Part shown: positions 1-20,686 of the stretch, in pieces
How positions within the stretch are numbered: the stretch's first letter is position 1
How the letters are laid out: every line of letters begins with the position of its first letter
Source: Nitrospinota bacterium
GTDB taxonomy: Bacteria; JADFOP01
Reading direction: 5' to 3'
NCBI GenBank assembly: GCA_022562795.1
Contig: JADFOP010000037.1
Span: forward strand, 1-22,638
Length of the DNA stretch: 22,638 bases
Notes under the pieces: generated by a model
What the model saw: the letters and a program-made list of their open reading frames with translations, nothing else
Told to the model about the DNA's origin: nothing
Databases searched by the model: none
Program-made: the position numbers and the translations under genes

Positions 1-485
1 GCTGCCTCGGCGTAGAGGAAGTGGGCGGCGTAGCGCTTGCGGTCGGCGATGCCCTTTAGGACCTTCTCCTGGCTCTTGGGCCCGAAGCCGGGCAGCGCCA
101 CAAGGCGGTTCTCGTGGCAGGCGTACTCGAGCTCACGCAGCGTCGTTATGCCGAGCTCGTCGTAGATGGCTCGAACCTTGCGCGGGCCCAGGTGCGGAAT
201 ATCGAGCAGCCCGAAGAGCCCTTCGGGGAGAGAGGCGCGCAGCTCCTCGTAGGCGGGCAGCCTCCCGGTGGTGACCAGCGTGGTGACCTTCTCCGTGATG
301 GCCTTCCCGAAGCCCTTGAGCTCCCCGAGCCGACCCGAGGCCACCAGGTCTTCGACGGGCTCGGCAGTGGCCGCCAGGGTGCGGGCGGCGTTGGCGTAGG
401 CCCGGACCTTGAAGGGGTTCTCCCCCTTCAGCTCCAGGATGACGGCCATCTCCTCCAGTACTGCCACCACCTGGTCTTTGTCCAC
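1..485 (-). CDS. polX: DNA polymerase X family (PolX), N-terminal part, cut by window edge
   Basis: This minus-strand reading frame runs off the left edge, so only the N-terminal 160 or so residues are visible. It opens MDKDQVVAVLEEMAVILELK and continues with ENPFKVRAYANAARTL, the helical 8-kDa-like domain that starts bacterial PolX proteins. Helix-hairpin-helix-type glycine motifs follow (GELKGFGKAITEK, IPHLGPRKVRAIY, LPGFGPKSQEKVL). The family are gap-filling repair polymerases, often with a C-terminal PHP 3'-5' exonuclease, which would lie outside the window. There is no ATG start. I chose the GTG at 485 because family members begin near MDK; an in-frame GTG at 503 is the only other option before an upstream stop, and neither has a good ribosome binding site. 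It probably follows cbiX in one operon. Confidence 0.85.
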   Translation of the reverse strand, partial: MDKDQVVAVLEEMAVILELKGENPFKVRAYANAARTLAATAEPVEDLVASGRLGELKGFGKAITEKVTTLVTTGRLPAYEELRASLPEGLFGLLDIPHLGPRKVRAIYDELGITTLRELEYACHENRLVALPGFGPKSQEKVLKGIADRKRYAAHFLYAEA

Positions 486-1707: not shown

Positions 1708-1801
1708 GGGAGCGAATGGGGCCCGGTGGCTCCCCTGGACTTCAAATCCAGTGTGGCGTCGAGAGGCGTCAGGTGGGTTCGACTCCCACACGCTTCCGCC
1801 A
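1708..1801 (+). tRNA. selC: tRNA-Sec (anticodon TCA)
   Basis: This is a 94-base selenocysteine tRNA gene with an encoded CCA. The anticodon stem CTGGA/TCCAG encloses CTTCAAA, giving anticodon TCA at 1742-1744, which reads UGA. Hallmarks of bacterial tRNA-Sec are present: an 8-position acceptor stem (GGGAGCGA with ACGCTTCC, one wobble and one terminal mismatch), a 6-bp D stem with a 4-base loop (GGGGCC-CGGT-GGCTCC), and a long variable arm (TGGCGTC-GAGA-GGCGTCA). The T arm is GTGGG-TTCGACT-CCCAC and the discriminator base is G. It implies that the organism makes selenoproteins; selA, selB and selD are not in the window. The 3' part of the gene is duplicated at 15755-15815. Confidence 0.93.
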
Positions 1802-1965
1802 TAACTCTTTGTAGCTAAATGTGTTGGATGCGTGGGATGCCGGGAGGAAGGGTTCCTGCGGGTCTAAACAGGCGTGTTGACAGGAGCCGATGGTTGAGAG
1901 GTTAGGTTCCAATCAATTTGATCAGTTTGTCGACGCTTGCTTTCCCATCACCAAAAATCATCATC
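1741..1965 (+). repeat. 225-bp direct repeat, left copy (attL-like)
   Basis: It begins in the tRNA-Sec anticodon loop (TTCAAATCC...) and runs through the tRNA 3' end, about 100 bases of spacer and the last 64 bases of a pntB coding sequence. It aligns without gaps to 15755-15979. Only two differences were found by eye: C at 1841 versus G at 15855, and C at 1859 versus T at 15873. Confidence 0.95.
1902..1965 (-). pseudogene. pntB 3' tail fragment
   Basis: These bases are identical to the last 64 bases of intact pntB (15916-15979) and encode its C-terminal DDKxx-like end through VDKLIKLIGT and the TAA stop. There is no upstream coding region: the reading frame is cut at 1965, where unrelated sequence begins. 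It is a by-product of the island duplication and is not expected to be expressed as a protein. Confidence 0.9.
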
Positions 1966-2049
1966 TGCCTCCTCACCGCCCTGGTGGTCAACATCAAGCG
2001 GTGGTTCAACCTCATCCAGGCCCGGGCCCCAACCCTGAGCCCTGCGTAG
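1966..2049 (+). pseudogene. Probable transposase C-terminal remnant
   Basis: Starting at the first base after the left repeat, an open frame of 27 codons reads to a TAG stop and contains TALVVNIKRWFNLIQ. This resembles the C-terminal helix of DDE transposases (LTAxVxNIKRW/L type). There is no start codon and no upstream continuation, because the frame is cut exactly at the repeat boundary. I could not find terminal inverted repeats. The peptide is short, so the family assignment is an inference from a remembered motif, not a search. Confidence 0.42.
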
Positions 2050-2163
2050 GCTCCGCCGATGAAGGGAAAGAAGAAAAAGAATCGAGGAAGTAAATGAGAG
2101 GGGAAGACTGACCAGATTCATAAACCTTAAGAATCCTGCCTGAAAATCCCACTTGTCCCGCCC

Positions 2164-2982
2164 TTAGCCGGAGGATTCTTTGCGGTCAAATATGACAGCC
2201 CGAACGGTTTCGCACACGTGCTGTACGACTGCGGTCACTTCCTCCATACGCCGCCCCAACAGGCGCATCGTGACCCCGCATTCAGCCGGCAGCTGACTGG
2301 CCCCTCCAAGGACAACTGCTGCGTCGGACACCAGGTTCTGGAGCGTGGCCGCCAGCTCCGGTGCGTGGCTAGAAGGGGTCAGGATGTGCACGATCCCAAG
2401 GATGTCGTAGGGGCCCATTAGTCCCGGGGCCGTAGGCGTTGCGTCATGGGGGCTGATGTAGTTGTGATCGGCGAACAGGAGGGAGCCTTCCAGGTCGTGA
2501 GCCTCCACCCTAGAAGAGTAGAGTGCGTAGGCATGCCGCTCATCCCTAGCGATGCGGCCTGAACAGATCGTCTCGGCAAAGATCAGCGTGGAGGAGGGAT
2601 CGGCCTCGAGGGTGACCGACTCGACAAATCGGGCATCGCGGAATGGAATCACCGGACCGGGGACGTATTCCAGGTAAGACTCCGCCTCGGTTCGCAGATG
2701 CACGTGCTGTGTGGCTGTCTCACCCGTGGAGCGGTAGATTTTGGTGGCAGCTGGCGTAGTCATCCGGACCTGGGTCCCCTCGTCAGCCCGAACCCCGATG
2801 GTGAACCGGTCCCCTTGTACGACCCCTCCGCTGGAAGACAACACGTAGACCGTAGCCATCCCAGGCATGGCGGGATCGGCGTAGATGGGCACCTGAACCT
2901 TGAGGGGCGCGCGGTGCTCTTGCTCCACAATACAGGTCCGGCCCGCTCTAAGAGCGAGGGTGAGACTGAGGGCGCCGTCCAT
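2164..2982 (-). CDS. ureD: Urease accessory protein UreD (UreH)
   Basis: A 272-residue UreD, the scaffold of the UreD-UreF-UreG complex that docks on apo-urease so nickel and CO2 can be delivered to the active site. Family features include YVLSSSGGVVQGDRF near residues 47-61, TTPAATKIYRS near 74-84, LEYVPGPVIPFRDARF near 103-118, and the late AECGVTMRLLGRR segment. The length is normal. The ATG overlaps the ureG stop as TAATG, so translation is probably coupled. It is the last gene of the urea operon and ends about 115 bases from the transposase remnant. I saw no clear intrinsic terminator after it. Confidence 0.93.
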   Translation of the reverse strand: MDGALSLTLALRAGRTCIVEQEHRAPLKVQVPIYADPAMPGMATVYVLSSSGGVVQGDRFTIGVRADEGTQVRMTTPAATKIYRSTGETATQHVHLRTEAESYLEYVPGPVIPFRDARFVESVTLEADPSSTLIFAETICSGRIARDERHAYALYSSRVEAHDLEGSLLFADHNYISPHDATPTAPGLMGPYDILGIVHILTPSSHAPELAATLQNLVSDAAVVLGGASQLPAECGVTMRLLGRRMEEVTAVVQHVCETVRAVIFDRKESSG

Positions 2983-3635
2983 TACTTAGGCTCAGTTTCT
3001 GGAGGGTGGACGGGCCAGTCCTGAAAGAGGACCTCGCGCCGAATCAGGGCTACGACGTCGTCGATCCCCTCGCCCGTCTTGCAGTTGGTAAACAGAAAAG
3101 GCTTTTCTCCACGGTAGCGGAGAGAATCGGCTTCCATGACGGCAAGGCTTGCTCCCACGTAGGGCGCCAGGTCGATTTTGTTGATGACGAGGAGGTCAGA
3201 CTGGGTGATGGCTGGTCCTCGTTTGCGGGGGATCTTATCGCCGGCGGCCACGTCGATGACGTAGATGTAATAATCAGCCAGCATAGGGCTGAAGGTCAGG
3301 GTCAGGTTGTCGCCGCCGCTCTCCAGGAATACGAGGTCGGTATCCGGGAAGCGGGTCTCCATCTCCTCAAGGGCGGCCAGGTTCATTGTTGGATCCTCCC
3401 GCACGGCGGTGTGCGGGCAGGCGCCGGTCTCCACCCCCAGGATCCGGTCTGGATCGAGGATGCCCTCCAGAGTCCGCTTCACGTGGAGGGCGTCCTCGAT
3501 GGTCACCACATCGTTGGTCACCACAATGATCTTGGTGCCATCGGCCACGAGCCGAGGGACTAGGGCCTCGATGAGGGCCGTCTTGCCGGACCCTACAGGG
3601 CCGCCTATGCCAATGCGAGGAATCGATTTCGTCAT
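2982..3635 (-). CDS. ureG: Urease accessory GTPase UreG
   Basis: A 217-residue SIMIBI-class GTPase that powers nickel transfer into urease. The P-loop GGPVGSGKT is at residues 11-19, the nickel-binding Cys-Pro-His motif lies at 73-75 ([11 protein letters not shown]), the [13 protein letters not shown] segment follows, and the guanine-specificity motif is in [13 protein letters not shown]. Unlike some UreG proteins it has no His-rich N-terminal extension; the His-rich metal reservoir here is on UreE. The ATG has GAGAGGG upstream, and the stop overlaps the ureD start. It follows ureF by 11 bases. Confidence 0.96.
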
Positions 3636-3646
3636 TTTGTGCCCTC

Positions 3647-4393
3647 TCAGCTGATGAAGAGCCGAACGTGCGCCTGTTCATGGCGCATTGCCATGATGTC
3701 GATAAGGGGCGTCCAGCTTCTCATTTCCTCCAGGGGTGTATCGACATGGGCGTCTACGACCCGAATGAGATGCGGGCGGAGACGAGCCAAAATGCTCTGG
3801 GCCTGGACGTGGTCAACGCGAATGAGCCGCATGGACACGCCCAGCAAGCCCACGGCAAAGGCGTAGAGCGCCGCCAACGTCGCCTCCCGTGGGGGGACGG
3901 CTAGGGCCGCCGCCGTCGCGGCGTAGGCAATGGCCGCGTTGCCTGGAGCTTCCCCCTCCTCCACAGCGTCCATGTAGGCTTGGAGGATGGGCTGATGGGC
4001 TAACGAGAGGGCAGTAGCGAGAACCCGCTTGCCGATGCGCATGGCCGCCTCGCGGGCCTCCCGGGTGAGTTTGACTGCGGTAAGACGACGGTCGACCTGG
4101 CACAGGGCAGTCAAGTCTTCTAAAAGGGCGGCGCGATGAGCATGGACAATGGCAACCCCATCAGCGGGGCCGACCAGGTGCTCTACGTAGGTGTGGAGGA
4201 GAGGTTCCAGGTCTTCGGCTTTTGTCACGAGGCCGTGCTGGACAAAGGTCTCCAATCCGTGGGAGAGAGTGTAAAGACCCGAAGGGAAAAACGAATCGGC
4301 CAGCTGCAACACCCCGAGGAAGCCGAGGTCGGTGGAGAGGCCTTGGGAAGCCTCACTGCTTCCGCCACTATTGGCCTTACCCTTCAAGGTCAT
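3647..4393 (-). CDS. ureF: Urease accessory protein UreF
   Basis: A 248-residue, mostly helical UreF that bridges UreD and UreG in the urease maturation complex and is thought to gate GTP hydrolysis. The family core begins at [20 protein letters not shown] (about residues 31-50), followed by an Ala-rich helical body and a C-terminal segment with [17 protein letters not shown]. The frame stays open far upstream through antisense-like ureE sequence, so I chose the ATG at 4393, which overlaps the end of ureE by 17 bases. No strong Shine-Dalgarno precedes it, and coupling to ureE is likely. The first 25 or so residues are not conserved-looking, so a slightly later start cannot be excluded. Confidence 0.92.
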
Positions 4394-4985
4394 GGCTGTG
4401 GGGATGCGAATGGGGGTGGTCATGGTGATGGTCGTGGTGCTTTGGCTGCAGAGGAGGGATTGCGCCGACAGCATGTTCCTCGAAGGCATAGTCGATCCCT
4501 TGGAGGTCGTAGGTTCTGAGGACCGCCTCAACCACCTCTTTGTCGACGGCCACAGGGACGAAGAGGTCCCGACCCTTAACCATAACCGGCCAATGTTGAT
4601 TTCCCAGAATGTGGCCGACCCGGACGGCTACCTCAATAATCTCTTCTTCCGACGCCGACGGCAGGAGGGTGATTCGCAAGACCTCTTCGGGCTTAAGGCG
4701 GACGACAATCATCCGTGACCCATCTTGCTCAAGGAAAAGGACGTCGCCGTCCCGTAGGAAGGTGCCGCGCTCCAAGCTGATCCCCAGACTCTCTCCCTTG
4801 TCGGTGGTGGCGCGAAAGCGCCTTTTCTGGGCATCATGCGCCGTCAGCCTCACCGTCTCCACCCTGCCTGCCGCTAGGCACTTTCGATGTAGAGCCTCCA
4901 GGCTGGCATCCTCTGCCAAGTTCCCGAGGAGCTTATCGACGACCAGCATTGGTTGCATCTCTTGAAACCGCTGTGGGTTCGACAT
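4377..4985 (-). CDS. ureE: Urease nickel metallochaperone UreE with His-rich tail
   Basis: A 202-residue UreE. The N-terminal domain (to about residue 90) carries DAQKRRFRATTDKGESLGISLERG, and the metal-binding domain carries IEVAVRVGHILGNQHWPV. The C-terminus is a histidine- and aspartate-rich tail ([18 protein letters not shown]) that can bind several Ni2+ ions, as in Klebsiella-type UreE. The protein hands nickel to UreG. The ATG has GGAG four bases upstream, 21 bases after the nickel permease stop. The end overlaps ureF. A His-rich loop also occurs in the adjacent permease. Confidence 0.94.
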   Translation of the reverse strand: MSNPQRFQEMQPMLVVDKLLGNLAEDASLEALHRKCLAAGRVETVRLTAHDAQKRRFRATTDKGESLGISLERGTFLRDGDVLFLEQDGSRMIVVRLKPEEVLRITLLPSASEEEIIEVAVRVGHILGNQHWPVMVKGRDLFVPVAVDKEVVEAVLRTYDLQGIDYAFEEHAVGAIPPLQPKHHDHHHDHPHSHPHSHDLEG

Positions 4986-5006
4986 CAGACTCCATGATGG
5001 TCGTCC

Positions 5007-5717
5007 TCATAGGCGAAATAGGCCTTGAACAATGCCGACGTTTGTCAAGATGAAGAAACCGTAGGCAACGCTGGCCATACCGGTCCCCACCCGAAGCCAT
5101 CGGTGGATGGGCGCATGGCTCTCCACCGTAATGAGAAAAGGAAGGCCAATCGCGGTGCTGACACACACCATTCCCAGAATAGAGCCCGCGCCGAAAATCA
5201 AGATATACAAAAGGCCCCAGAGAGGTGTGGGGATGGTGGCAAGCACCAAGAGCATCAAGGCGGCGCTCCCCGCCATGCCGTGGACCATGCCCACGAGAAG
5301 GGATCTCCCGTGGTGGGCCGACCAGTGTTCGTGGTCATGATCCTCCCCGCCCGCATGTGAGTGGAAATGGAGGTGAGTGACACCGTCGTGTTGGTGAGCG
5401 TGGGCGTGAACCTTGCCGGTGATGTAGCCCTTGACGACGGAGACGCCGAGGGCCACAAGGACCACCCCCACGGCGAATTCCATGTAGAGGGCGATGTACT
5501 GTGGGATAGTGATCTTGAACACGATGACGAGGAGCCCTACAAGGAAGAGGGCCGTGGTGTGACCCAGGCCCCAGAAGACCCCAGCGGTGGAGGCCCGCCG
5601 CAGGGTGCGGTGCTGGCTGACGAGGGTCGAGACAGCGATTACGTGGTCGGCCTCGAGGGCATGGACAAGGCCCAAGAGGAAACCCATCGACAAGGTCGTT
5701 AGCAGGGTCGGACCCAC
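5007..5717 (-). CDS. NiCoT/UreH-like nickel permease
   Basis: A 236-residue integral membrane protein with about six hydrophobic segments. Near residues 20-26 it has HALEADH, matching the HX4DH nickel-binding signature of NiCoT-type transporters, and GLGHTTALF follows in the next helix. A central hydrophilic loop (about residues 103-135) is rich in His (HAHAHQHDG, HFHSHAGGEDHDHEH), likely a metal-sensing or loading loop. The role inferred is uptake of Ni2+ for urease, supported by its place between ureC and ureE. The start is GTG at 5717 with AAGGAG five bases upstream; no ATG is available at this position. Cobalt transport is an alternative that the neighbourhood makes less likely. Confidence 0.85.
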   Translation of the reverse strand: MGPTLLTTLSMGFLLGLVHALEADHVIAVSTLVSQHRTLRRASTAGVFWGLGHTTALFLVGLLVIVFKITIPQYIALYMEFAVGVVLVALGVSVVKGYITGKVHAHAHQHDGVTHLHFHSHAGGEDHDHEHWSAHHGRSLLVGMVHGMAGSAALMLLVLATIPTPLWGLLYILIFGAGSILGMVCVSTAIGLPFLITVESHAPIHRWLRVGTGMASVAYGFFILTNVGIVQGLFRL

Positions 5718-5743
5718 GTTTTCTCCTTCAGCCGAATCGGCCT

Positions 5744-7462
<1,719 letters not shown>

Positions 7463-7463
7463 A

Positions 7464-7859
7464 TTATGCCCCCTTGTAACCCTGTTCTCGTGCCTTCGAC
7501 AAGGCGCGGTCACGAACAGAGGCCTCCCTGACGTCGCCGTCCGTCAGGCTGTTCAAACCGTAGATTTTCTTCATGCCTGCGAGCTCCACCAGGACCACCA
7601 TACGCTCTTCCCCAGGCTCGAAACGAGTGCTGGTCCCTGATGGTATGTTCAGGCGCATACCGAGGGCCTTCTCTCGATCGAACCTTAGGGCCTGATTTAC
7701 CTCGAAGAAGTGGAAGTGGGCGCCTATCTGGACAGGCCGGTCCCCTGTGTTGGCCACTAGAAGTTCCTCTGTCCTGCGACCCTCGTTGACCACAATGTCG
7801 CCGTCGGCGGGAATGATCTCTCCAGGGACCAGGGGGGTAAGAGACGATGAGCCGGACAT
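7464..7859 (-). CDS. ureB: Urease beta subunit
   Basis: A 131-residue UreB with the usual [20 protein letters not shown] start and [15 protein letters not shown] core. The C-terminus ([19 protein letters not shown]) is a little longer than in the shortest homologues. It is a structural partner of UreC in the (UreABC)3 holoenzyme. The ATG is preceded by GGAGGGAG. It lies 14 bases after ureA and one base before ureC, so the three structural subunits are tightly linked and separate (not the fused UreAB found in Helicobacter). Confidence 0.96.
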
Positions 7860-7873
7860 CGCAAGACTCCCTC

Positions 7874-8176
7874 CTATTTTATGGGTTCATGAACGGTAAC
7901 CAGCTTCGTGCCGTCGGGAAAGGTGGCTTCGACTTGGACCTCATCTATCATCTCGGCCACTCCATCCATGACGTCATCGCGGGATAAGATTGTAGTCCCT
8001 GCTTGCATCAACTCGACAACGGAACGTCCATCGCGGGCACCCTCCACCATGGCGGATGAAATGACCGCGACCGCTTCAGGATAGTTTAGCTTAAGGCCCC
8101 TTTGTCGTCGAGCCTTTGCCACCTCCGCCGCCATGTATACTAATAGCTTTTCTTGCTCCCGGGGAGTGAGGTGCAT
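7874..8176 (-). CDS. ureA: Urease gamma subunit
   Basis: A 100-residue UreA, the standard length. It begins [20 protein letters not shown], has the [21 protein letters not shown] core, and ends with [15 protein letters not shown]. It forms the structural trimer interface of the urease holoenzyme. The ATG has AAAGGAGG upstream. A 97-base gap separates it from urtE; I see no convincing promoter in that gap, so it is probably read from the urt promoter. Confidence 0.96.
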
Positions 8177-8273
8177 GCTATCTTCCCTCCTTTCCTGACG
8201 GTGAAACCTTAGGGTTGGGATCCTCCTTTGCCGCCCTGCCGCCCGAGGTCCCCACCTTCCTGCCCTGCATGCG

Positions 8274-8969
8274 CTACACTGTGAGGTGCTTCTTTACGAT
8301 TTCCTCGTCGATCTTCTCTGTGGAGCCCTCAGATACGATTGAGCCTCGTTCCATCACGTAGTATGAGTCGGCCAAGCGCCAGGCAAACGCCAGGTACTGC
8401 TCCACTAAGAGAATGGAGACCGTCCGCTGCTCTTTGAGGCGGCGGATGGCGTTTTCGATCTGTAGGATGATCGATGGTTGAATTCCCTCGGTGGGCTCAT
8501 CGAGCAACAGCAGCTTGGGTCGCGCCACCAGAGCCCTGGCGATAGCCAACTGCTGCTGTTCACCCCCGCTTAGGTTTCCCCCCTGCCTGGACAATATGGA
8601 CTGTAACGCCGGGAACAGCTCGAAGACGTCTTGAGGAACGGTATGGCCTCTTCCTCGGAGCGCCTCCAGGCCGAGTTGAAGGTTTTCTTGGACCGTGAGA
8701 TTTGGAAAAATTTCCCGCCCCTGGGGCACGTAGCCCATCCCGCGCGCCGCCCGCTGAGAGGGGGGCCGCCTGGTGATATCTTCCTCTGCGAAGTGGATCT
8801 TTCCCCGTTTCGGCCTAAGCAGGCCGGCAATGCTCTTCAAGAGCGTCGTCTTGCCCATTCCGTTTCGCCCCATGAGACAAACCACCTGCCCTGGGGGGAT
8901 GTGCAGGTTCACATCGCGTAGGATGTGACTCTCGCCATAATATACGTTGAGCATCTCAATGCGAAGCAT
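8274..8969 (-). CDS. urtE: Urea ABC transporter ATP-binding protein UrtE
   Basis: A 231-residue LivF-like ATPase, one of the two ATP-binding subunits of the urea importer. Walker A is [10 protein letters not shown], the signature is [16 protein letters not shown], Walker B is [13 protein letters not shown], and the H-loop region reads SILLVEQYL. The phrase [11 protein letters not shown] is typical of UrtE as opposed to generic LivF. I chose the ATG at 8969 ([17 protein letters not shown]) with GAGGG just upstream. It overlaps the urtD end by 14 bases, suggesting coupled translation. Confidence 0.92.
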
Positions 8970-9717
8970 GGCCCTCGTTTCCCCGTCCCAGGTAGAGCTC
9001 AATCACCCGAGAGTCGCTCTGAACCTTTTCCATTGGGCCTTCGCACAGGATCATCCCCTCGTGGAGCACCGTCACCTTCTTGGCAATCTGACGGACGAAG
9101 CTCATGTCGTGCTCAATGACAAGTATCGACTGGTCGGTGGCGATGGACTGAAGCAACCGCACGGTTTTTTCCCGCTCCCCTTCTGTCATGCCGGCGACGG
9201 GCTCGTCGATGAGTAGCAGGTCCGGGTCCTGGACGATGACCATCCCGATCTCCAACCACTGTTTCTCGCCGTGGGAGAGAAGACCAGCCTTCTGGTGGGT
9301 TTTGTGAGCTAGCCCAATGACTTCCAGAATGGCGTAAATTTGCTCAACGTCGGACGAGCTCAAGGGGTTGAAGAGCGTCGAAAAAACCTTCCGGTTCGTC
9401 TGATATGAGAGCTCCAGGTTCTCGAAGGCAGTGAAGTTCGTATACACCCCAGGGGTTTGGAATTTGCGCCCTATCCCAAGGTTGGCAATTTGATTTACCC
9501 GAAGGCCGTTGATTTCGGACCCCTTGAAGAGGACCCGGCCTTCTACAGGCTTCACCTTGCCGGTGATGACATCGAGGAGGGTGGTCTTTCCGGCCCCGTT
9601 GGGGCCGATCACGACCCGAAGCTCTCCCGGGTCCATAGAGAAATTCATCCCCTGGAGGGCTTTAAAGCCGTCGAAGCTCACGGTCACGTTTTCGACTCGC
9701 ACAATGGGTTCACGCAT
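8956..9717 (-). CDS. urtD: Urea ABC transporter ATP-binding protein UrtD
   Basis: A 253-residue LivG-like ATPase pairing with UrtE. Walker A is GPNGAGKTTLLDVITGK, the signature reads LLSHGEKQWLEIGM (the form usual in UrtD), Walker B is LLLIDEPVAGMT, and the H-loop His is in ILVIEHDM. The frame extends about 50 codons upstream inside urtC. The ATG at 9717 is chosen because MREPIVRVENVTVSFDGF is the family start and it forms a TAATG overlap with the urtC stop. The C-terminus overlaps urtE. Confidence 0.93.
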   Translation of the reverse strand: MREPIVRVENVTVSFDGFKALQGMNFSMDPGELRVVIGPNGAGKTTLLDVITGKVKPVEGRVLFKGSEINGLRVNQIANLGIGRKFQTPGVYTNFTAFENLELSYQTNRKVFSTLFNPLSSSDVEQIYAILEVIGLAHKTHQKAGLLSHGEKQWLEIGMVIVQDPDLLLIDEPVAGMTEGEREKTVRLLQSIATDQSILVIEHDMSFVRQIAKKVTVLHEGMILCEGPMEKVQSDSRVIELYLGRGNEGHASH

Positions 9718-10862
9718 TATGACGACCTTTGGGGGGCGGGGGAGGTTTCCTTGCCCACCGGCGCGGCGGTGGTGCGCCTGCGGAGGCGAAGATGCCGAAG
9801 AGAGCCCATGATGCCGTCGGGGATAAATAGGACGACCCCGACGAACAGAGAACCAAGGAAGATAAGCCACAGATCGGGGTAAGAGGTGGTCAGGAAGCTC
9901 CTTGCCCAGTTGACCCCGATAGCGCCAACCACAGCCCCCACCAGAGTTCCTCGACCCCCGACGGCAACCCAGATGACCATTTCGATTGACGGAATGACTC
10001 CTATTTGCGAGGGAGTAATGATGCCAACTTGGGGTACGTAGAGGGCTCCGGCCAGGCCAGCCAGGGCTGCGGAGACTACAAAGACGAAGAGTTTGTAGTT
10101 AGCCGGGGAGTAGCCGGAGAAACGGACCCGGTTCTCGTTATCGCGCGTGGCCGTCAAAACTTTACCCAGTCGGGACTTGGTGATCCATCGGCAGAGCAGG
10201 TAAGAGCCTATCAGACACAACACCGTGGTGATGTAGAGGCCCCGCTGGGTGCTAGGGCTGAGCAGGTCAAATCCCAAGACGGTCTTGAAATCCGTGAGCC
10301 CGTTGGTGCCTCCGAGGTTGAGTTCGTTCCGGTTGAACAGCAGCCATATTACAAGGGCCAGGGCCTGAGTGATGATGGCAAAATACACGCCTCGAATGCG
10401 ACTACGGAATGCCAGAAAGCCGAAGACCAATGCAAAAAGGGCGGGCACGAGGAAAATCCCAGCCAGTGTGACTCCAAAGCTGTAAAAGGGTTTCCAGAAG
10501 AGGGGCAATGCCTTGACTTGGTTCCAGACCATGAAATCGGGCAACGTGCTCTGGTAGACACTTTGCTTGCCTATGGCCAACATGAGGTGCATCCCCATAA
10601 CGTAGGCCCCCAGGCCGAAGAAGACACCTTGGCCTAAGCTCAAGATACCCGTATAACCCCAGATGAGGTCGATTCCGAGGGCCAATATTGCGTAGGCCAA
10701 AAATTTGCCAAAGAGGTTCAGGTAAAAATCGGGCAGGTAGAGGGAGGAGCCCTGAGCCGGGAGCGCGTTCAGCAAGGGTAAGACGAACAACAGCAAAACG
10801 GCAATGAGCCCTAAGGATATCTTCTCTGCTCGAGTCCAAGAGGCTGTCGCCGTAAGTTTCAC
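9717..10862 (-). CDS. urtC: Urea ABC transporter permease UrtC
   Basis: A 381-residue LivM-like inner-membrane permease with about 9-10 hydrophobic segments. Family features include ILALGIDLIWGYTGILSLGQGVFFGLGAY near the N-terminus, LGGTNGLTDFKTVLGFDL in the middle, and VAVGGRGTLVGAVVGA, a likely ATPase-coupling region. The C-terminal 25 residues are Arg/Pro-rich and probably cytoplasmic. The start is GTG at 10862 with AAGGAGG about nine bases upstream. It follows urtB by 18 bases and overlaps urtD by one base. Confidence 0.93.
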   Translation of the reverse strand: MKLTATASWTRAEKISLGLIAVLLLFVLPLLNALPAQGSSLYLPDFYLNLFGKFLAYAILALGIDLIWGYTGILSLGQGVFFGLGAYVMGMHLMLAIGKQSVYQSTLPDFMVWNQVKALPLFWKPFYSFGVTLAGIFLVPALFALVFGFLAFRSRIRGVYFAIITQALALVIWLLFNRNELNLGGTNGLTDFKTVLGFDLLSPSTQRGLYITTVLCLIGSYLLCRWITKSRLGKVLTATRDNENRVRFSGYSPANYKLFVFVVSAALAGLAGALYVPQVGIITPSQIGVIPSIEMVIWVAVGGRGTLVGAVVGAIGVNWARSFLTTSYPDLWLIFLGSLFVGVVLFIPDGIMGSLRHLRLRRRTTAAPVGKETSPAPQRSS

Positions 10863-10880
10863 GTATTACTTTCCTCCTTA

Positions 10881-12650
10881 TCAGTATTCCGCCAGCCGGC
10901 CCTTGGCAGGAAAGAGCCCCGAAGGCTTCCATTGGAGGAAGAGGATGACCAGGACGACAATCAAAACTTTCCCAAAGACCGCACCAAAGCTCGGCTCCAG
11001 CAGTTTGTTCAACCCTCCGATCCCAAAGGCTGCGGCCAGAGTGCCAGCCAGCTTGCCAACGCCACCTGCCACGACCACCATGAAGGAATCCACAATGTAG
11101 TTCTGGCCGAGGTCGGGTCCCACGTTGCCCACCGTGCTCAGGGCGCAACCGGCCATGCCGGCCAGACCCGAGCCCAGGGCGAAGGTGTAGGTATCCACCT
11201 TGCGGGCAGGAATTCCCAAGCACGCGCTCATCTCCCGGTTCTGTGTGACCGCCCGCACCCGCAGGCCTGGTTTGGAGTGAAAGAGCAGGAGGTACGTCCC
11301 TACGAGGCTTGCCACCGCCAGGACAATGATGAAGAGGCGATTGTAGGGCAGCTGCACACCTACCATGGCCTGGAACCCGCCTCTGAGCCAACTAGGGGCC
11401 GTGACGTCCACGTTGGCAGCTCCGAAGATTAACCGGATGGCCTGCTGAAGGATAAGGCTCACTCCCCACGTGACCAGCAGGGTATCCAAGGGGCGACCGT
11501 AGAGGAATCGAATGACACTTCGCTCCATCACGAAGCCCATCGCGCCTGCCACCACAAAGGAGAAGGGAATGGCAAGTAAGAAGTAATAGTCAAACAAGTT
11601 CGCGGGAAGGTAGGTCTGAAACCAACCCTGCATGACAAAGGCCGAGTAAGCTCCCAACATCATCAGCTCACCGTGGGCCATGTTGATGACGCCCATGAGG
11701 CCGAAGGTTACGGCCAGGCCCAGGGCCATGAGCAGCAGAATGGAAGATAAGCTCAACCCACGAAACAGCGTGCCCACTACACTGGTGATCCCCTCCCACC
11801 GCTCGATTTGTTCAATGGCGACTTCCGCCGCCCGCTGAACGGAACCGTCGCTCGTTGCACTGTCCCCGCCAGCCGGTGCCTCCACTAAGCGCTGCAGAGT
11901 TGAGAGGGCAGTCTCGGCCCGTAGTTCACCAAGCCTTACAGCCGCTTCCCGCCGGACCTCAGGATTGTCATCCGACAGCTTTAGGAGGTTGATGGCTTCG
12001 TGGATGGCGTTCCGGATCCACCACGTGGGTTCTTTGGAAAGCGCTTCCTCCAGTAGGGGTATGAGTTCGGGACGGCCTAAGCTACCGAGCCTCGTTGCGG
12101 CAGACCGTCGCGTGTTGGGATCGAGGTCGAAAAGGTTGACTCGGCTTCGCAACTCATCAATTATCGGCTTCATGATGCGCCGCAAACGGCGGTCGGGCCA
12201 GATGGCTTCCAGCGCCGAGGTCTCGACGTAGATAGCCTGACCATCGTCAGACTGAATGATCTCTCCATTGTCCGCTCGGACAATGGAAACAACCTCCTTT
12301 TCATCGCGGGTAGCGTGTTCCCGGGCGATGACCGTCTCACGACCTCCGGAGGGTTGTCTCCATACGTAGAGGCTCCCTCCACGCAGGGCCTCGAGGACCG
12401 AAAGCACCCGGGGGTCGCCTAGCTTGCCCAAGGCGATGACGGCAGCCCTCTGGACAGCCTTGTCGGGGCTTGAGAGATCAGCGACGAGGCGAGCCAACTC
12501 AGTAGCCGGGCTACGCCCATGGGAGCTTGCCCCAGGCGGTTGAGAAGCCTTAGCGGCGACTGGCCAGAGAATTCCTATGCTCACCACCAAAAGGACGAAT
12601 GCCCCCGAGAGGAGGATCGTGTGCGTGGAAAGTCTCGCCTTAGCTAGCAT
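10881..12650 (-). CDS. urtB: Urea ABC transporter permease UrtB with N-terminal HEAT-like domain
   Basis: A 589-residue protein in two parts. Residues 1 to about 285 begin with a hydrophobic signal-like helix (TILLSGAFVLLVVSIGILW) and then carry HEAT-like helical repeats, for example VQRAAVIALGKLGDPRVL, TRRSAATRLGSLGRPELIP and VRREAAVRLGELRAETAL. The rest is a LivH-like permease starting near LSLSSILLLMALGLAVTFG, with GVINMAHGELMMLGAYSAF and VVVAGGVGKLAGTLAAAFG. Long N-terminal extensions are known in UrtB of several bacteria and would lie outside the membrane. The ATG at 12650 lacks a strong ribosome binding site; a TTG three codons upstream is possible. It follows urtA after a hairpin-containing gap. 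Confidence 0.9.
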   Translation of the reverse strand: MLAKARLSTHTILLSGAFVLLVVSIGILWPVAAKASQPPGASSHGRSPATELARLVADLSSPDKAVQRAAVIALGKLGDPRVLSVLEALRGGSLYVWRQPSGGRETVIAREHATRDEKEVVSIVRADNGEIIQSDDGQAIYVETSALEAIWPDRRLRRIMKPIIDELRSRVNLFDLDPNTRRSAATRLGSLGRPELIPLLEEALSKEPTWWIRNAIHEAINLLKLSDDNPEVRREAAVRLGELRAETALSTLQRLVEAPAGGDSATSDGSVQRAAEVAIEQIERWEGITSVVGTLFRGLSLSSILLLMALGLAVTFGLMGVINMAHGELMMLGAYSAFVMQGWFQTYLPANLFDYYFLLAIPFSFVVAGAMGFVMERSVIRFLYGRPLDTLLVTWGVSLILQQAIRLIFGAANVDVTAPSWLRGGFQAMVGVQLPYNRLFIIVLAVASLVGTYLLLFHSKPGLRVRAVTQNREMSACLGIPARKVDTYTFALGSGLAGMAGCALSTVGNVGPDLGQNYIVDSFMVVVAGGVGKLAGTLAAAFGIGGLNKLLEPSFGAVFGKVLIVVLVILFLQWKPSGLFPAKGRLAEY

Positions 12651-12674
12651 TGTTCTCAATTTATCTTATCAACT

Positions 12675-12707
12675 GCCCGGAGCAGAGGTCTTCCCTCCGC
12701 TCCGGGC
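12675..12707 (-). promoter_or_regulatory. Intergenic hairpin between urtA and urtB
   Basis: A perfect 9-bp inverted repeat (GCCCGGAGC / GCTCCGGGC) with a 15-base loop lies in the 97 bases between urtA and urtB. No T-run follows on the minus strand, so it is not a classical intrinsic terminator. Such hairpins after a binding-protein gene often stabilise the upstream mRNA and lower expression of the membrane genes; that role is an inference here. Confidence 0.6.
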
Positions 12708-12747
12708 GATTACCCGTAGACCTCCGCTAATCGACGGGTCGTGAAGT

Positions 12748-14082
12748 TTAGGTCTTTATGTACGTTCCCTTATGATCGACCCAGTCGCAGCCCTTGTCTG
12801 GGTTGGTGTATTCGCTCCACGGCTCAGGCGCCACCAGACCCTTGGAGCGCGAAACGGTGCGGAACTGCCCATCTGCGAGAATCTCTCCGATAAGGACCGG
12901 CTTGTGGGTGTGGTGGTTCCTCTCGTCCAGCTTCACCCAGCCGCCGGGGGCCAGGGTCTTCTGCCCGTAGGCCGCTTGACGAACGGCATCGACCTCAGTG
13001 GTACCCGCCTTCTCGACGGCCTGCTTCCAGAGGTATACGCCGAAATATGCCGCCTCGATGGGGTCATCGGTGACTCGCTTGTAGCCCCCAGGCAGCTTTT
13101 TGCGTTTGCAGTACGCCTTAAAGTTCTTCACGAACCGTTTGTTTTGGGGGGTGTCGACCGACTGGAAGTAGTTCCAGGCAGCAAGATGCCCCACCAAGGC
13201 GGAGGTATCCATTCCGCGGAGTTCATCCTCTGCCACGCTGAAGGCAATGATGGGGGCATCCTCGGATCTCAACCCCTGATTGGCGAACTCTTTGTAGAAA
13301 GGCACGTTGCTGTCGCCATTGATGGTGCTGATAACGGCAGCATCGCCGCCTGCGGCGAACTTTTTAATCTTGCCGATGATGGTCTGGTAGTCTTGATGGT
13401 GGAAGGGGGTGTACTCCTCCATAATGTTTTTCGGCGGCACACCCTTGGCCAGGAGCATAGCCCGGAGGATCTTGTTGGTCGTCCGGGGATAGACGTAATC
13501 TGTACCGAGGAGGTAGAATTTCTTGTATTCACCCCCCTCTTCGCTCATAAGGTATTCGACGGCCGGGACGGCTTGCTGGTTGGGGGCAGCCCCGGTGTAG
13601 AAGACATTTCGCGAACATTCTTCACCCTCATACTGCACAGGGTAGAAGAGCAGCCCGTTGTACCGCTCAAAGACGGGCAGCACCGACTTGCGGCTTACAG
13701 AAGTCCAGCAGCCGAAAACCACCGGTACCTTCTTCTGGAGCAAGAAGTACTTCGCCTTCTCGGCAAAGAGGTCCCAGTTGGAGGCCGGATCGACGACAAT
13801 GGGCTTGATGGATCGGCCCAACACGCCCCCCTTGGCGTTGATCTCCTCCACAGCCATAAGGACCACATCTCGTAGGGAGACCTCGCTTATGGCCATCGTC
13901 CCGCTGAGGGAGTGAAGGACCCCTATTTCGATGGGGCCCTTGGCCGCGTGCGCGTACTTCGCTAAGGAAAGCCCTCCCAAAAGCGAAGCGGCCGTGGCCC
14001 CCATCCCGATCTTGGCGGTCCGCGCCAAGAAATCTCGGCGAGATAGATTTCTGGCCCCGCTGTTGTTGCTCTTAGTCGACAT
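12748..14082 (-). CDS. urtA: Urea ABC transporter substrate-binding protein UrtA (Tat-exported)
   Basis: A 444-residue periplasmic binding protein of the AmiC/UrtA group. It starts MSTKSNNSGARNLSRRDFLA, a twin-arginine signal (SRRDFLA), with a hydrophobic stretch and AHA cleavage-like site near residue 45. The mature N-terminus is PIEIGVLHSLSGTMAISEV. UrtA-like stretches follow: PVVFGCWTSVSRKSVLPVFE, LLFYPVQYEGEE and GTDYVYPRTTNKILRAM. The frame is open 36 codons upstream into the leader. The ATG at 14082 is chosen for its very strong GGAGGAGG site and the Tat motif. It is the first gene of the operon, after a leader with ANTAR-type hairpins. Confidence 0.94.
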   Translation of the reverse strand: MSTKSNNSGARNLSRRDFLARTAKIGMGATAASLLGGLSLAKYAHAAKGPIEIGVLHSLSGTMAISEVSLRDVVLMAVEEINAKGGVLGRSIKPIVVDPASNWDLFAEKAKYFLLQKKVPVVFGCWTSVSRKSVLPVFERYNGLLFYPVQYEGEECSRNVFYTGAAPNQQAVPAVEYLMSEEGGEYKKFYLLGTDYVYPRTTNKILRAMLLAKGVPPKNIMEEYTPFHHQDYQTIIGKIKKFAAGGDAAVISTINGDSNVPFYKEFANQGLRSEDAPIIAFSVAEDELRGMDTSALVGHLAAWNYFQSVDTPQNKRFVKNFKAYCKRKKLPGGYKRVTDDPIEAAYFGVYLWKQAVEKAGTTEVDAVRQAAYGQKTLAPGGWVKLDERNHHTHKPVLIGEILADGQFRTVSRSKGLVAPEPWSEYTNPDKGCDWVDHKGTYIKT

Positions 14083-14211
14083 TACGTTTCCTCCTCCTTC
14101 TCCTTTCACCTTTGACGAACCATCGGGAAGGCGAACTAGTCTGTCGTTGGACCCACGGTCCTGGGTGTTGACCGCTTCCGTGAGGCTCACCTGCCCTTGG
14201 TCGGAGCCACC

Positions 14212-14248
14212 AAAAAATGGTGCCCCTGGAGTTCCATAGGAAGGCGCC
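14212..14248 (-). terminator. Possible leader terminator controlled by ANTAR hairpins
   Basis: On the minus strand GGCGCCTT can pair with AGGGGCACC (one bulge and one C-A mismatch), followed directly by A and six T (14217-14212). The 5' arm overlaps the loop and 3' arm of the promoter-distal hexaloop hairpin (14241-14256), so the two folds exclude each other. This is the layout expected for ANTAR antitermination. The stem is imperfect. Confidence 0.42.
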
Positions 14249-14347
14249 GTTGCCTCGCAAGAAGGATACGCCGTTGTATCCTAAACCGCTTACTATGACG
14301 AATTACCTGACTGGTGGGAAAGGATACTTCGCTGTACCCCAACCCAC
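14241..14347 (-). promoter_or_regulatory. ANTAR-target leader RNA with three hexaloop hairpins
   Basis: In transcript order (minus strand), hairpin 1 (14347-14314) has outer stem GTGGG/CCCAC, inner stem GGGTAC/GTATCC and loop AGCGAA. Hairpin 2 (14281-14264) has stem GGATAC/GTATCC and loop AACGGC. Hairpin 3 (14256-14241) has stem GAGGC/GCCTT and loop AACGGC. All three hexaloops have A at position 1 and G at position 4, the known recognition signature of ANTAR proteins, which bind paired hairpins of this type. Hairpins 2 and 3 are seven bases apart and are the likeliest pair. An ANTAR regulator is encoded immediately upstream. Confidence 0.75.
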
Positions 14348-14362
14348 TAACTATCCTTACTT

Positions 14363-14378
14363 AACAAGATACGTGCCA
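14363..14378 (-). promoter_or_regulatory. Probable sigma-54 promoter of the urt-ure operon
   Basis: The minus strand reads TGGCACG-TATC-TTGTT. This matches the -24 element 7/7, has the correct 4-base spacing, and matches the -12 TTGC(A/T) element except for C to T. The predicted start near 14352 falls only a few bases before the first leader hairpin. No full NtrC palindrome was seen upstream, only GCACC half-sites. Confidence 0.6.
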
Positions 14379-14494
14379 AATCCCTCCCTCATGGGTGCCA
14401 GCCTACTAATCCTTGCTTTTTAACATGTTATAGGTGCGACGAGAAAAAACCTGTTTTCAACATCGATTGTAGTTAGGCTGCGATTGCTCAACAT

Positions 14495-15154
14495 TTAATC
14501 ACCCCCGGGCGGTTTCGCGGCATTTGGTACTTGCTCCGAGACCTCCCCTTGCAGACACTGGATGCCAAGAATAATAGCTTCAGCCACCTCGTTTATCGGC
14601 TGGCGAGAGCTCATGCTGAGCCGCCGCATTTGGCTAAAGGCTTCCTGTTCGGTGATCTTCCGCTGCTCCATGAGGATGCCCTTGGCCCGCTCAATAACCT
14701 TCCTGTGCTCGAGTTTCCCTTCAAGTTCGCGGACCGCTCCACGTAGCATCTGAAGGTCTTCAAACCGCTTGAGGGCTATTTCGATGGTTGGTTGGAGCTC
14801 CTCGATATCAAACGGTTTCTTCATAAAGGCCATGATTCCTGCTTCTTTGGCCCGCTCGACAGTTTCAGCATCGCCGTACGCCGTCAGCAGGATAATAGCT
14901 GTGGGATGGTGTTCGTTGATGGCTCGGGATGCCTCCAAACCATCGGGTGCAGGAATCCGAGCATCCATCAGAATGATCTGCGGGCGTACTTGTAACGCTA
15001 GTTGGATAGCTTCCTCCCCGGTCTCCGCCGCCGCAACCACCGTATAGCCCAACGTCGGGAGGCTCTTGGTTAGGACCAGGCGGATGGACGGGTCATCATC
15101 CACGATGAGAACCGTCTTGCCTACCTGGCTACCTTGTTTATGATTTCTGGCCAA
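14495..15154 (-). CDS. ANTAR-domain response regulator (AmiR/NasT-like antiterminator)
   Basis: A 219-residue two-domain regulator. The receiver domain (about residues 12-130) has the acidic pair DD at 19-20 (VLIVDDDPSIR), the phospho-acceptor Asp64 (IILMDARIPAPDG) and the conserved Lys in MKKPF near 112. A linker coiled-coil-like helix precedes the ANTAR domain (about 145-200), marked by VIERAKGILMEQRKITEQEA, FSQMRRLSMSSR and INEVAEAII. ANTAR proteins bind paired hexaloop hairpins and prevent termination; just such hairpins lie in the urtA leader 150 bases downstream. The predicted start is TTG at 15154 with GGAAGG about 11 bases upstream. No cognate kinase is in the window. A UrtA-family sensor as in AmiC-AmiR is conceivable. 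Confidence 0.88.
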   Translation of the reverse strand: MARNHKQGSQVGKTVLIVDDDPSIRLVLTKSLPTLGYTVVAAAETGEEAIQLALQVRPQIILMDARIPAPDGLEASRAINEHHPTAIILLTAYGDAETVERAKEAGIMAFMKKPFDIEELQPTIEIALKRFEDLQMLRGAVRELEGKLEHRKVIERAKGILMEQRKITEQEAFSQMRRLSMSSRQPINEVAEAIILGIQCLQGEVSEQVPNAAKPPGGD

Positions 15155-15754
15155 TGGGCTTCGATCCTTCCTTAATAGCGTTTCCGGATTTGATGGTGGG
15201 CAGTGCCATCTGCTCGTCGGGGCAACCGTGGAATCCTGACCCTAGTCACTATTCAAGGGAGATTGGATAGCAAGGAACATGCCTCTCTTGCGCGTCTTCA
15301 AGAAGCGAGACTCCAACTCATGCTTTTTTAATACCTTGAGTACGGAATGCTTGCGTCGTTCCGTTCGAAGACCGATCTATCGGAATCAAGCTATGATTAG
15401 ATATTAGGCAGGAATAAGCTTGAGTGACTAACTCTTGAAGCAAGCTTTGGCCTTCCATGGTCCTCTCAGAGGCACGACCCCATTGAAGCGCCATGCCCTA
15501 ACGCTGGAGCCTGTACCTGTTGCAGGTTTGACGAAATCGCAGATAGATGTTCGGGGTGGGAGTAAAGGTCCGACCCAACCGTGCCGGTTTAATTAGTACG
15601 TATAGTCCCGTTAATATTAACTCAAGCCATCCAACAACTCCAAATCCAACCAAATTCGTGCCAACTTAGACTGAATTGATGAGGCGAGTTAAGTTGCTGC
15701 AAACTAAGCCGTTCCAGGGTCTTGGGGCGCTGGCTTGATTTGGCACCGCTCGAA
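15155..15754. other. 600-base stretch without recognisable genes at right island end
   Basis: Apart from the sigma-54-like element near 15269-15284, I see no convincing coding frame, tRNA or transposon end. There are short imperfect inverted repeats (for example CCGATCTATCGG near 15380 and AAGCTT-flanked sequence near 15416-15455). The look is of AT-richer, possibly decayed mobile-element DNA. The plus-strand frame entering the right repeat does not resemble an integrase to me. Confidence 0.5.
15269..15284 (-). promoter_or_regulatory. Possible sigma-54 promoter of the ANTAR regulator gene
   Basis: The minus strand reads AGGCATG-TTCC-TTGCT. It has the invariant GG and GC separated by ten bases and a full TTGCT -12 element; the -24 element differs from TGGCACG at two positions. 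The predicted start is about 100 bases before the TTG start of the regulator. Confidence 0.5.
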
Positions 15755-15815
15755 TTCAAATCCAGTGTGGCGTCGAGAGGCGTCAGGTGGGTTCGACTCC
15801 CACACGCTTCCGCCA
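15755..15815 (+). pseudogene. tRNA-Sec 3' half (truncated duplicate)
   Basis: Identical to bases 1741-1801 of the intact gene: anticodon loop from its second base, variable arm, T arm, acceptor 3' strand and CCA. The D arm and acceptor 5' strand are absent, so it cannot make a functional tRNA. Such 3' fragments are the usual scar of an element inserted in a tRNA gene. Confidence 0.93.
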
Positions 15816-15979
15816 TAACTCTTTGTAGCTAAATGTGTTGGATGCGTGGGATGCGGGGAGGAAGGGTTCCTGTGGGTCTAAACAGGCGTGTTGACAGGAG
15901 CCGATGGTTGAGAGGTTAGGTTCCAATCAATTTGATCAGTTTGTCGACGCTTGCTTTCCCATCACCAAAAATCATCATC
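15755..15979 (+). repeat. 225-bp direct repeat, right copy (attR-like)
   Basis: Gapless copy of 1741-1965 with two substitutions. It begins with the tRNA-Sec sequence from the anticodon loop onward and ends inside intact pntB. The bases just left of it (GGCACCGCTCGAA) do not resemble the 5' half of tRNA-Sec, so the repeat edge is sharp. Confidence 0.95.
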
Positions 15980-20531: not shown

Positions 20532-20544
20532 TAAAAAGACAGTA

Positions 20545-20612
20545 ATTCCGGAAAATCGCGGAAAATCGCATCGGGGAAATTCCGGAAATTCCGGAAAATC
20601 GCGGAAAATCGC
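20545..20612 (+). repeat. Short tandem/direct repeats with TTCCGGAA palindromes
   Basis: Two identical 25-base units (20545-20569 and 20588-20612), each ATTCC followed by two GGAAAATCGC blocks, flank an 18-base segment with a third ATTCCGGAA. The 8-base palindrome TTCCGGAA occurs three times. The block is in the 155 bases between the cysteine desulfurase gene and the A-type carrier gene, and could be an operator cluster or just a slippage repeat. Confidence 0.85.
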
Positions 20613-20686
20613 GGAAAGAAGCATTATATTAATAAATGGAACGAAATTCGATCCATTCGATACGGCGATATGAGAGGAGTTAAATA

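What the first reader, a model, noticed from the sequence alone, without database searches (positions are those of the whole stretch)
1741..15979. A complete urea-use system sits in a 14,014-bp unit inserted at selC, bounded by 225-bp repeats
Seen: two gapless 225-bp direct repeats (two mismatches) start in the tRNA-Sec anticodon loop and end inside pntB. The left side keeps the whole tRNA; the right side keeps whole pntB. Known: selC is a classic island target and anticodon-loop crossovers are typical of tyrosine integrases. Inference: the urtABCDE-ureABC-ureEFGD cluster with its regulator and nickel permease was gained as one block. The near identity of the repeats suggests recent insertion, or gene conversion, or an element still able to excise.
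Basis: partly seen in the sequence, partly recalled or inferred. Interest (0 to 1): 0.85.

Follow-up and report, generated by a model that had tools for sequence, protein, structure and literature searches.

The report
Mobile urea-use gene island at selC
In an uncultivated, probably marine bacterium, a complete 13-kb set of genes for taking up and splitting urea sits as an inserted block behind a tRNA gene, and its sister species carries nearly the same block beside an integrase and a broken piece of a different tRNA, which shows that this nitrogen-feeding kit travels between genomes and sites.

Summary
Two 225-bp gapless direct repeats (1741-1965 and 15755-15979; 2 mismatches) flank a complete urea system. 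The left copy belongs to an intact tRNA-Sec gene and ends in a 64-bp pntB stub. The right copy is a broken tRNA-Sec joined to intact pntB. New evidence comes from the only sister genome held (same genus). It carries the same cluster, 94% identical in DNA over 10.4 kb, while core genes are 73-86% identical. Identity at fourfold sites is 0.74-0.96 for urea genes and 0.46-0.72 for core genes (one exception, polX). In the sister the cluster lies elsewhere, beside a half tRNA-Asp also broken at the anticodon loop and followed by a tyrosine integrase. The sister's selC holds a different, integrase-bearing element with a 29-bp att repeat. So the urea block is lateral, and selC is an active island site in this genus. 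The unit has no integrase, its left junction is a truncated transposase, and the repeat runs into pntB. It therefore looks like a decayed, CIME-like island or one placed by homologous recombination, not an autonomous element. Excision is untested. This is a new member of a known kind.

The parts
1708..1801 (+). selC, intact tRNA-Sec gene (anticodon TCA at 1742-1744)
   Evidence: ARAGORN; Rfam RF01852, 77.6 bits
1741..1965 (+). left copy of the 225-bp direct repeat: selC 3' half, 100-bp spacer, last 64 bp of a pntB copy (1902-1965)
   Evidence: found only twice in the genome
1966..2042 (+). C-terminal remnant of a transposase-like gene, truncated exactly at the repeat's end; about 90% identical to sister-genome copies at G001:C88 and C564
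   Evidence: transposase identity from reading the translation, no profile match run
2155..15605 (.). block shared with the sister genome (G001:C44:25592-39113, other location)
   Evidence: BLAST 93.8% / 88.4% / 86.7% over three segments; sliding identity
2164..2982 (-). ureD
   Evidence: Pfam PF01774
2982..3635 (-). ureG
   Evidence: TIGR00101
3647..4381 (-). ureF (5' boundary approximate)
   Evidence: Pfam PF01730 on ORF 3647-4531
4377..4985 (-). ureE
   Evidence: NCBIfam UreE models
5007..5717 (-). putative nickel permease, NicO/HupE-like, weak score
   Evidence: PF03824, 26.2 bits, cut-off 27.7; TIGR00802 weak
5744..7513 (-). ureC
   Evidence: TIGR01792; 98% aa to sister
7464..7859 (-). 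ureB
   Evidence: TIGR00192
7874..8176 (-). ureA
   Evidence: TIGR00193
8274..9002 (-). urtE
   Evidence: TIGR03410
8956..9720 (-). urtD (start approximate)
   Evidence: TIGR03411
9717..10862 (-). urtC
   Evidence: PF02653
10881..12659 (-). urtB with N-terminal HEAT repeats
   Evidence: PF02653 and HEAT_2
12748..14190 (-). urtA, urea-binding protein
   Evidence: PF13433
14242..14281 (-). urtA leader: dual hairpins, both with loop AACGGC (A1, G4), spaced 8 nt; likely ANTAR antiterminator
   Evidence: conserved in G001; motif definition PMC3369931
14495..15154 (-). ANTAR response regulator (receiver + ANTAR)
   Evidence: PF00072, PF03861
15606..15754 (.). 149-bp non-coding arm between the shared block and the broken tRNA; no convincing relative found
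15755..15979 (+). right copy of the repeat: selC 3' half lacking a proper 5' half, spacer, 3' end of the intact pntB
   Evidence: below Rfam gathering score
15916..17286 (-). pntB, intact
   Evidence: PF02233

Best explanation
This is an integrase-less, tRNA-linked genomic island (CIME-like) carrying a complete urea-import and urease module. The module was acquired laterally as one block and placed at selC by recombination with an incoming molecule, probably circular, that carried a copy of selC 3' half-spacer-pntB end. Crossover, most likely at the anticodon loop by a tyrosine integrase that has since been lost or acted in trans, left an intact selC on one side and a broken one before pntB on the other. 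A later transposase-associated deletion trimmed the left end. Once in place it would give the cell ammonium from urea: UrtABCDE imports urea, UreABC splits it, UreEFGD and the permease supply nickel, and the ANTAR regulator lets transcription read through the urtA leader. Shown: repeats, cargo, intact and broken tRNA, another location in the sister, excess similarity, an integrase element at the sister's selC. Inferred: the circle, the integrase crossover, the order of events, urea use.
For: Repeat anatomy: intact tRNA plus displaced 3' fragment in the same orientation, the signature used by Islander (PMC4383910). The sister G001 has the block at 93.8% identity over 10,447 bp, where a core segment compared in one 20-kb search gives 73-83% and other core segments 75-86%. 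Fourfold-site identity is 0.74-0.96 in all 14 cargo genes and 0.46-0.72 in the core genes compared, with polX as the one exception. In G001 the block ends next to a short arm plus a half tRNA-Asp broken at the anticodon loop, then a tyrosine integrase, with the regulator end facing the fragment as in the window. The intact tRNA-Asp is elsewhere in both genomes. G001's selC carries another element: an integrase ORF running into selC, and a 29-bp identical remnant 6.1 kb from pntB. G002 (same class, 96% complete) has no urease match.
Against: No integrase lies in the unit, and none lies at selC in this genome. The repeat extends 164 bp past the tRNA, into pntB, which is more than a tRNA-restoring attP needs. 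The left inner edge is a transposase fragment, not an att arm. The 149-bp right arm has no recognised relative. Tetranucleotide composition is only mildly unusual. G001 appears to be a fragmented single-cell assembly (780 contigs), so the order of its C44 contig could be imperfect, and a core-like glgC region, not an intact tRNA-Asp, lies on the other side of its cluster.
Confidence: 0.66

Rival explanations
1. Homologous (Campbell-type) insertion: a circle carrying the urea block plus a captured selC 3' half-pntB fragment from a close relative recombined with the chromosome through at least 225 bp of homology, by RecA-type recombination, with no integrase acting at this step.
For: The repeat includes pntB coding sequence and is 99.1% identical, while the sister species' pntB is only about 82% identical, so the captured piece came from the same or a very near lineage. 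The left end is a transposase remnant, which could have supplied the circle's other join. There is no integrase in the unit.
Against: The break on the right is exactly in the anticodon loop, as expected of a tyrosine integrase and as in the sister's half tRNA-Asp. So an integrase at least shaped that junction at some time.
Confidence: 0.22
2. The urea cluster is vertical and ancestral in the genus, unusually conserved, and was only relocated by local rearrangement.
For: Both genomes of the genus carry it in the same gene order.
Against: Fourfold-site identity is far above core genes throughout, and non-coding DNA (15269-15605) is 87% identical. The locations differ and both are tRNA-fragment junctions. 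The same-class genome G002 lacks a ureC match.
Confidence: 0.07
3. Assembly artefact: two molecules (chromosome with empty selC-pntB and a free circular element, or two strains) were joined through the shared repeat.
For: It is a draft genome in 84 contigs and the repeat could be a graph join; no reads are available.
Against: The copies differ at two sites and the longest identical run is 106 bp, so they were not simply collapsed. Both flanks match the sister genome's selC and pntB neighbourhoods, and the sister's 29-bp att remnant independently links those two flanks. Even under this reading a circular urea element with an att-like block would exist.
Confidence: 0.05

Closest known systems
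CIME (cis-mobilizable element), e.g. relatives of ICESt1 in Streptococcus and the integrase-less ssrA islands of Dehalococcoides
   Same: Cargo flanked by att-like repeats, no integration or transfer genes, at a site also used by integrase-bearing elements (PMC5704250; PMC3146451)
   Different: The parental integrase-bearing element with the same anticodon-loop site at selC was not found; the repeat includes neighbouring coding DNA; mobilisation was not shown
tRNA-targeted integrative islands (Islander type, anticodon-centred 'A' class)
   Same: Intact tRNA plus same-strand 3' fragment, break in the anticodon loop (PMC4383910)
   Different: Islander requires an integrase inside the island; none here. 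The repeat is 225 bp
Tycheposons and related cargo-carrying elements of marine bacteria
   Same: tRNA-linked elements with tyrosine recombinases and nitrogen or nutrient cargo, as described in PMC10872708
   Different: No recombinase in the unit; no sequence relation was tested; the host lineage is different
Long att identities such as phage HP1's (about 182 bp, tRNA-Leu anticodon loop)
   Same: A long identity block that starts at an anticodon loop and runs past the tRNA (own knowledge, not found in the library)
   Different: HP1 is a complete phage with its own integrase; its att does not, as far as I recall, include a truncated protein gene
Urea gene clusters of Nitrospinia and other marine nitrifiers
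   Same: UrtABCDE plus urease for nitrogen assimilation (PMC10839748)
   Different: In that study they are reported for class Nitrospinia and absent from the other Nitrospinota classes; no island context was given in the passages read

Membership tests
tRNA-targeted integrative genomic island | Intact tRNA gene at one end and a displaced, same-orientation fragment of it at the other | tested here: met
tRNA-targeted integrative genomic island | Integrase gene inside the island | tested here: not met
   All cargo ORFs are urea genes or regulator; PF00589 hits in the genome are on C6, C9 and C53 only
tRNA-targeted integrative genomic island | Absent from, or elsewhere in, close relatives | tested here: met
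   G001 has the cluster at C44, and its selC-pntB interval holds other DNA; no truly empty site was found
CIME | Flanking attL/attR-like sites | tested here: met
   225-bp repeats spanning the selC 3' half
CIME | No integration or transfer genes | tested here: met
CIME | Derived from an ICE or IME that used the same att site | tested here: inconclusive
   The sister has an integrase element at selC, but with a T-loop/3'-end 29-bp att, not the anticodon-loop site
CIME | Can be mobilised in cis | not testable with these tools
   Needs reads or experiments
Tycheposon | Tyrosine recombinase in the element, next to the tRNA | tested here: not met
   The left end is a transposase remnant followed by ureD
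Tycheposon | Nutrient or nitrogen cargo at a tRNA site | tested here: met
Prophage or phage satellite | Phage structural, replication or packaging genes | tested here: not met
   None among the cargo ORFs; no relative of UrtA in IMG/VR

The most novel reading that the evidence does not exclude
In this lineage a whole urea-nutrition module is traded between species as cargo that hops among tRNA genes (selC, tRNA-Asp) by borrowing integrases of different specificity, with its regulator end against the broken tRNA in both cases seen. At selC it spreads by means of a captured stretch of chromosome (selC end to pntB) instead of a true attP.
Probability: 0.25. Interest if true: 0.6.

Novelty: new member of a known kind. 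Interest (0 to 1): 0.45.

Why it matters
Whether an uncultivated microbe can use urea decides part of its place in the nitrogen cycle, and this is usually read from species-level gene lists. Here the trait behaves as a portable block at tRNA genes, with synonymous divergence far below the genome's own, so it may differ between strains of one species and spread quickly. It also shows selC and tRNA-Asp as island sites in a poorly known lineage.

Tried and rejected
Composition as evidence of foreign origin: not informative; the pntB flank deviates more than the cargo. Integrase in the unit: none; G000's three integrase-family hits are two of about 300 aa on C6 and C9 that look Xer-like and one beside tRNA-Thr on C53. 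Viral origin: UrtA, the sister's selC integrase and the exact selC half gave no relatives in IMG/VR. A known att arm in 15606-15754: only chance-level hits. Second tRNA-Sec called by ARAGORN (15724-15811): rejected as functional; Rfam does not accept it. Rfam '5_ureB_sRNA' (7012-7310, plus strand): antisense to ureC and probably scored through coding conservation. Ancestral content between selC and pntB: the 6.1 kb in G001 is absent from G000 and G002 apart from short repeats, so it looks like a further insertion.

Full report
Observation. The window is the whole contig C37 of a 2.15-Mb draft genome. The two repeats are real: 225 bp, gapless, 2 mismatches at 1841 and 1859, offset 14,014, and they occur nowhere else in the genome. 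The repeat begins at 1741, one base before the Sec anticodon (1742-1744), runs through the tRNA 3' half and a 100-bp spacer, and ends 64 bp inside pntB. The left tRNA is intact. The right one lacks a proper 5' half and does not reach Rfam's gathering score, although ARAGORN lists it. pntB on the right is a full 456-aa ORF.

Content. Between the repeats, all on the minus strand, are ureD, ureG, ureF, ureE, a weakly scoring NicO-like permease, ureC, ureB, ureA, urtE, urtD, urtC, urtB, urtA and a receiver-ANTAR regulator. No integrase, relaxase or phage gene was seen. The left inner edge, 1966-2042, matches the C-terminal end of transposase-like copies in the sister genome at about 90%; the transposase identity rests on reading the translation, not on a profile match. 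That match starts exactly where the repeat stops, so the present 225-bp length may be what a deletion left of a longer duplication.

Sister genome. The only other held genome of the genus, G001, appears from contig length and coordinates to be the Nitrospinae assembly AH_259_B05_G02_I21. It has UreC at 98% amino-acid identity. The shared block is window 2155-15605 against G001:C44:25592-39113: 93.8% over 10,447 bp, 88.4% over 2,505 bp and 86.7% over 338 bp. Identity drops in patches around 9700-10000, 11800-12700 and 14200-14500. Core DNA between the two genomes is 73-83% identical in a 20-kb test and 75-86% in other segments. At fourfold-degenerate sites the 14 cargo genes are 0.74-0.96 identical and the core genes 0.46-0.72. 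The single exception is the polX fragment at the contig edge (0.885). The block therefore separated much later than the genomes around it.

Different place, similar kind of junction. In G001 the regulator end of the block is followed by a short arm, then the 3' half of a tRNA-Asp gene broken in the anticodon region, then a tyrosine integrase. A similar arm (76%) occurs again on the same contig next to a tRNA-Gly-like anticodon stretch, so the arm looks like the end of a family of integrative elements. The intact tRNA-Asp genes are at C55 in G000 and C88 in G001. In the window too the regulator end faces the broken tRNA. On the ureD side G001 has a glgC region that is syntenic with G000:C1 for about 3 kb. 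The full extent of the G001 island is therefore unknown, and the draft assembly calls for caution.

selC as a site. G001's selC (C288) is abutted by a 427-aa tyrosine integrase ORF that runs into the tRNA gene. A 29-bp identical piece of the tRNA 3' end lies at C444:1729-1757, 6.1 kb from pntB. The 6.1 kb between has no counterpart in G000 other than short repeats. So the selC-pntB interval has been entered by different DNA in the two species. The crossover class also differs: T-loop/3' end in G001, anticodon loop in the window. This independent link between selC and pntB also argues against a chimeric contig.

Mechanism. The sequence shows the product but not the reaction. An integrase crossing over at the anticodon loop with an attP that carries selC half-spacer-pntB end gives this structure. 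So does a homologous crossover anywhere in the 225 bp with a circle carrying the same piece. The anticodon-loop break favours an integrase at some step. The inclusion of pntB coding DNA, the transposase stub and the missing integrase favour decay or a homologous step. I put most weight on a CIME-like island that lost its integrase or was placed in trans. CIMEs are defined as elements that lost integration and transfer genes but keep attL/attR (PMC5704250). Dehalococcoides has 15 ssrA islands without integration modules (PMC3146451).

Regulation (side result). The urtA leader carries two hairpins spaced 8 nt at 14264-14281 and 14242-14255 (minus strand), each with loop AACGGC. A further hairpin at 14322-14340 has loop AGCGAA. 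All have A at loop position 1 and G at position 4, and all are kept in G001, where the third loop is AACGAA. This is the dual-hairpin motif bound by ANTAR proteins (PMC3369931). The terminator scan found no consensus terminator, so termination by the second hairpin's 3' strand with GGGGCACC-AUUUUUU is only a suggestion.

Novelty. Metabolic islands at tRNA genes, CIMEs and nitrogen-cargo elements in marine bacteria are known. New here are the case itself, the comparison showing that the same urea block sits at two tRNA-linked places in sister species, and the host lineage. I rate it a new member of a known kind, of moderate interest.

Noticed in passing
window 14242-14340: urtA leader with dual AxxGxx hexaloop hairpins next to a gene for an ANTAR regulator: likely urea- or nitrogen-controlled antitermination carried with the cargo
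   Followed up: partly
window 1-482: polX fragment is 96% identical to the sister genome while the adjacent cbiX region is 75% identical: possible recent recombination in a core gene
   Followed up: no
L112:1-8210 and L113:1-1757: Integrase-bearing element at selC in the sister genome with DnaB-like helicase, nuclease and sugar transferase genes and a 29-bp att remnant
   Followed up: partly
L175:11040-11106 and L151:15474-15575: Two similar element arms next to tRNA-Gly-like and tRNA-Asp anticodon stretches: perhaps a family of elements using different tRNA anticodon loops
   Followed up: partly
L113:1760-7880: 6.1 kb with two PMT_2 glycosyltransferase-like genes between the selC remnant and pntB in the sister, absent from G000
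   Followed up: partly
window 7012-7310: Rfam 5_ureB_sRNA match (99.2 bits) antisense to ureC, probably through coding conservation
   Followed up: no
L179:10245-11475: Integrase gene next to tRNA-Thr (CGT) in G000: likely another island site
   Followed up: no
window 20544-20622: Short patterned direct repeats (GGAAAATCGC units) between the class-V aminotransferase (IscS-like) gene and the next gene; similar units also at L173:9795-9830
   Followed up: no
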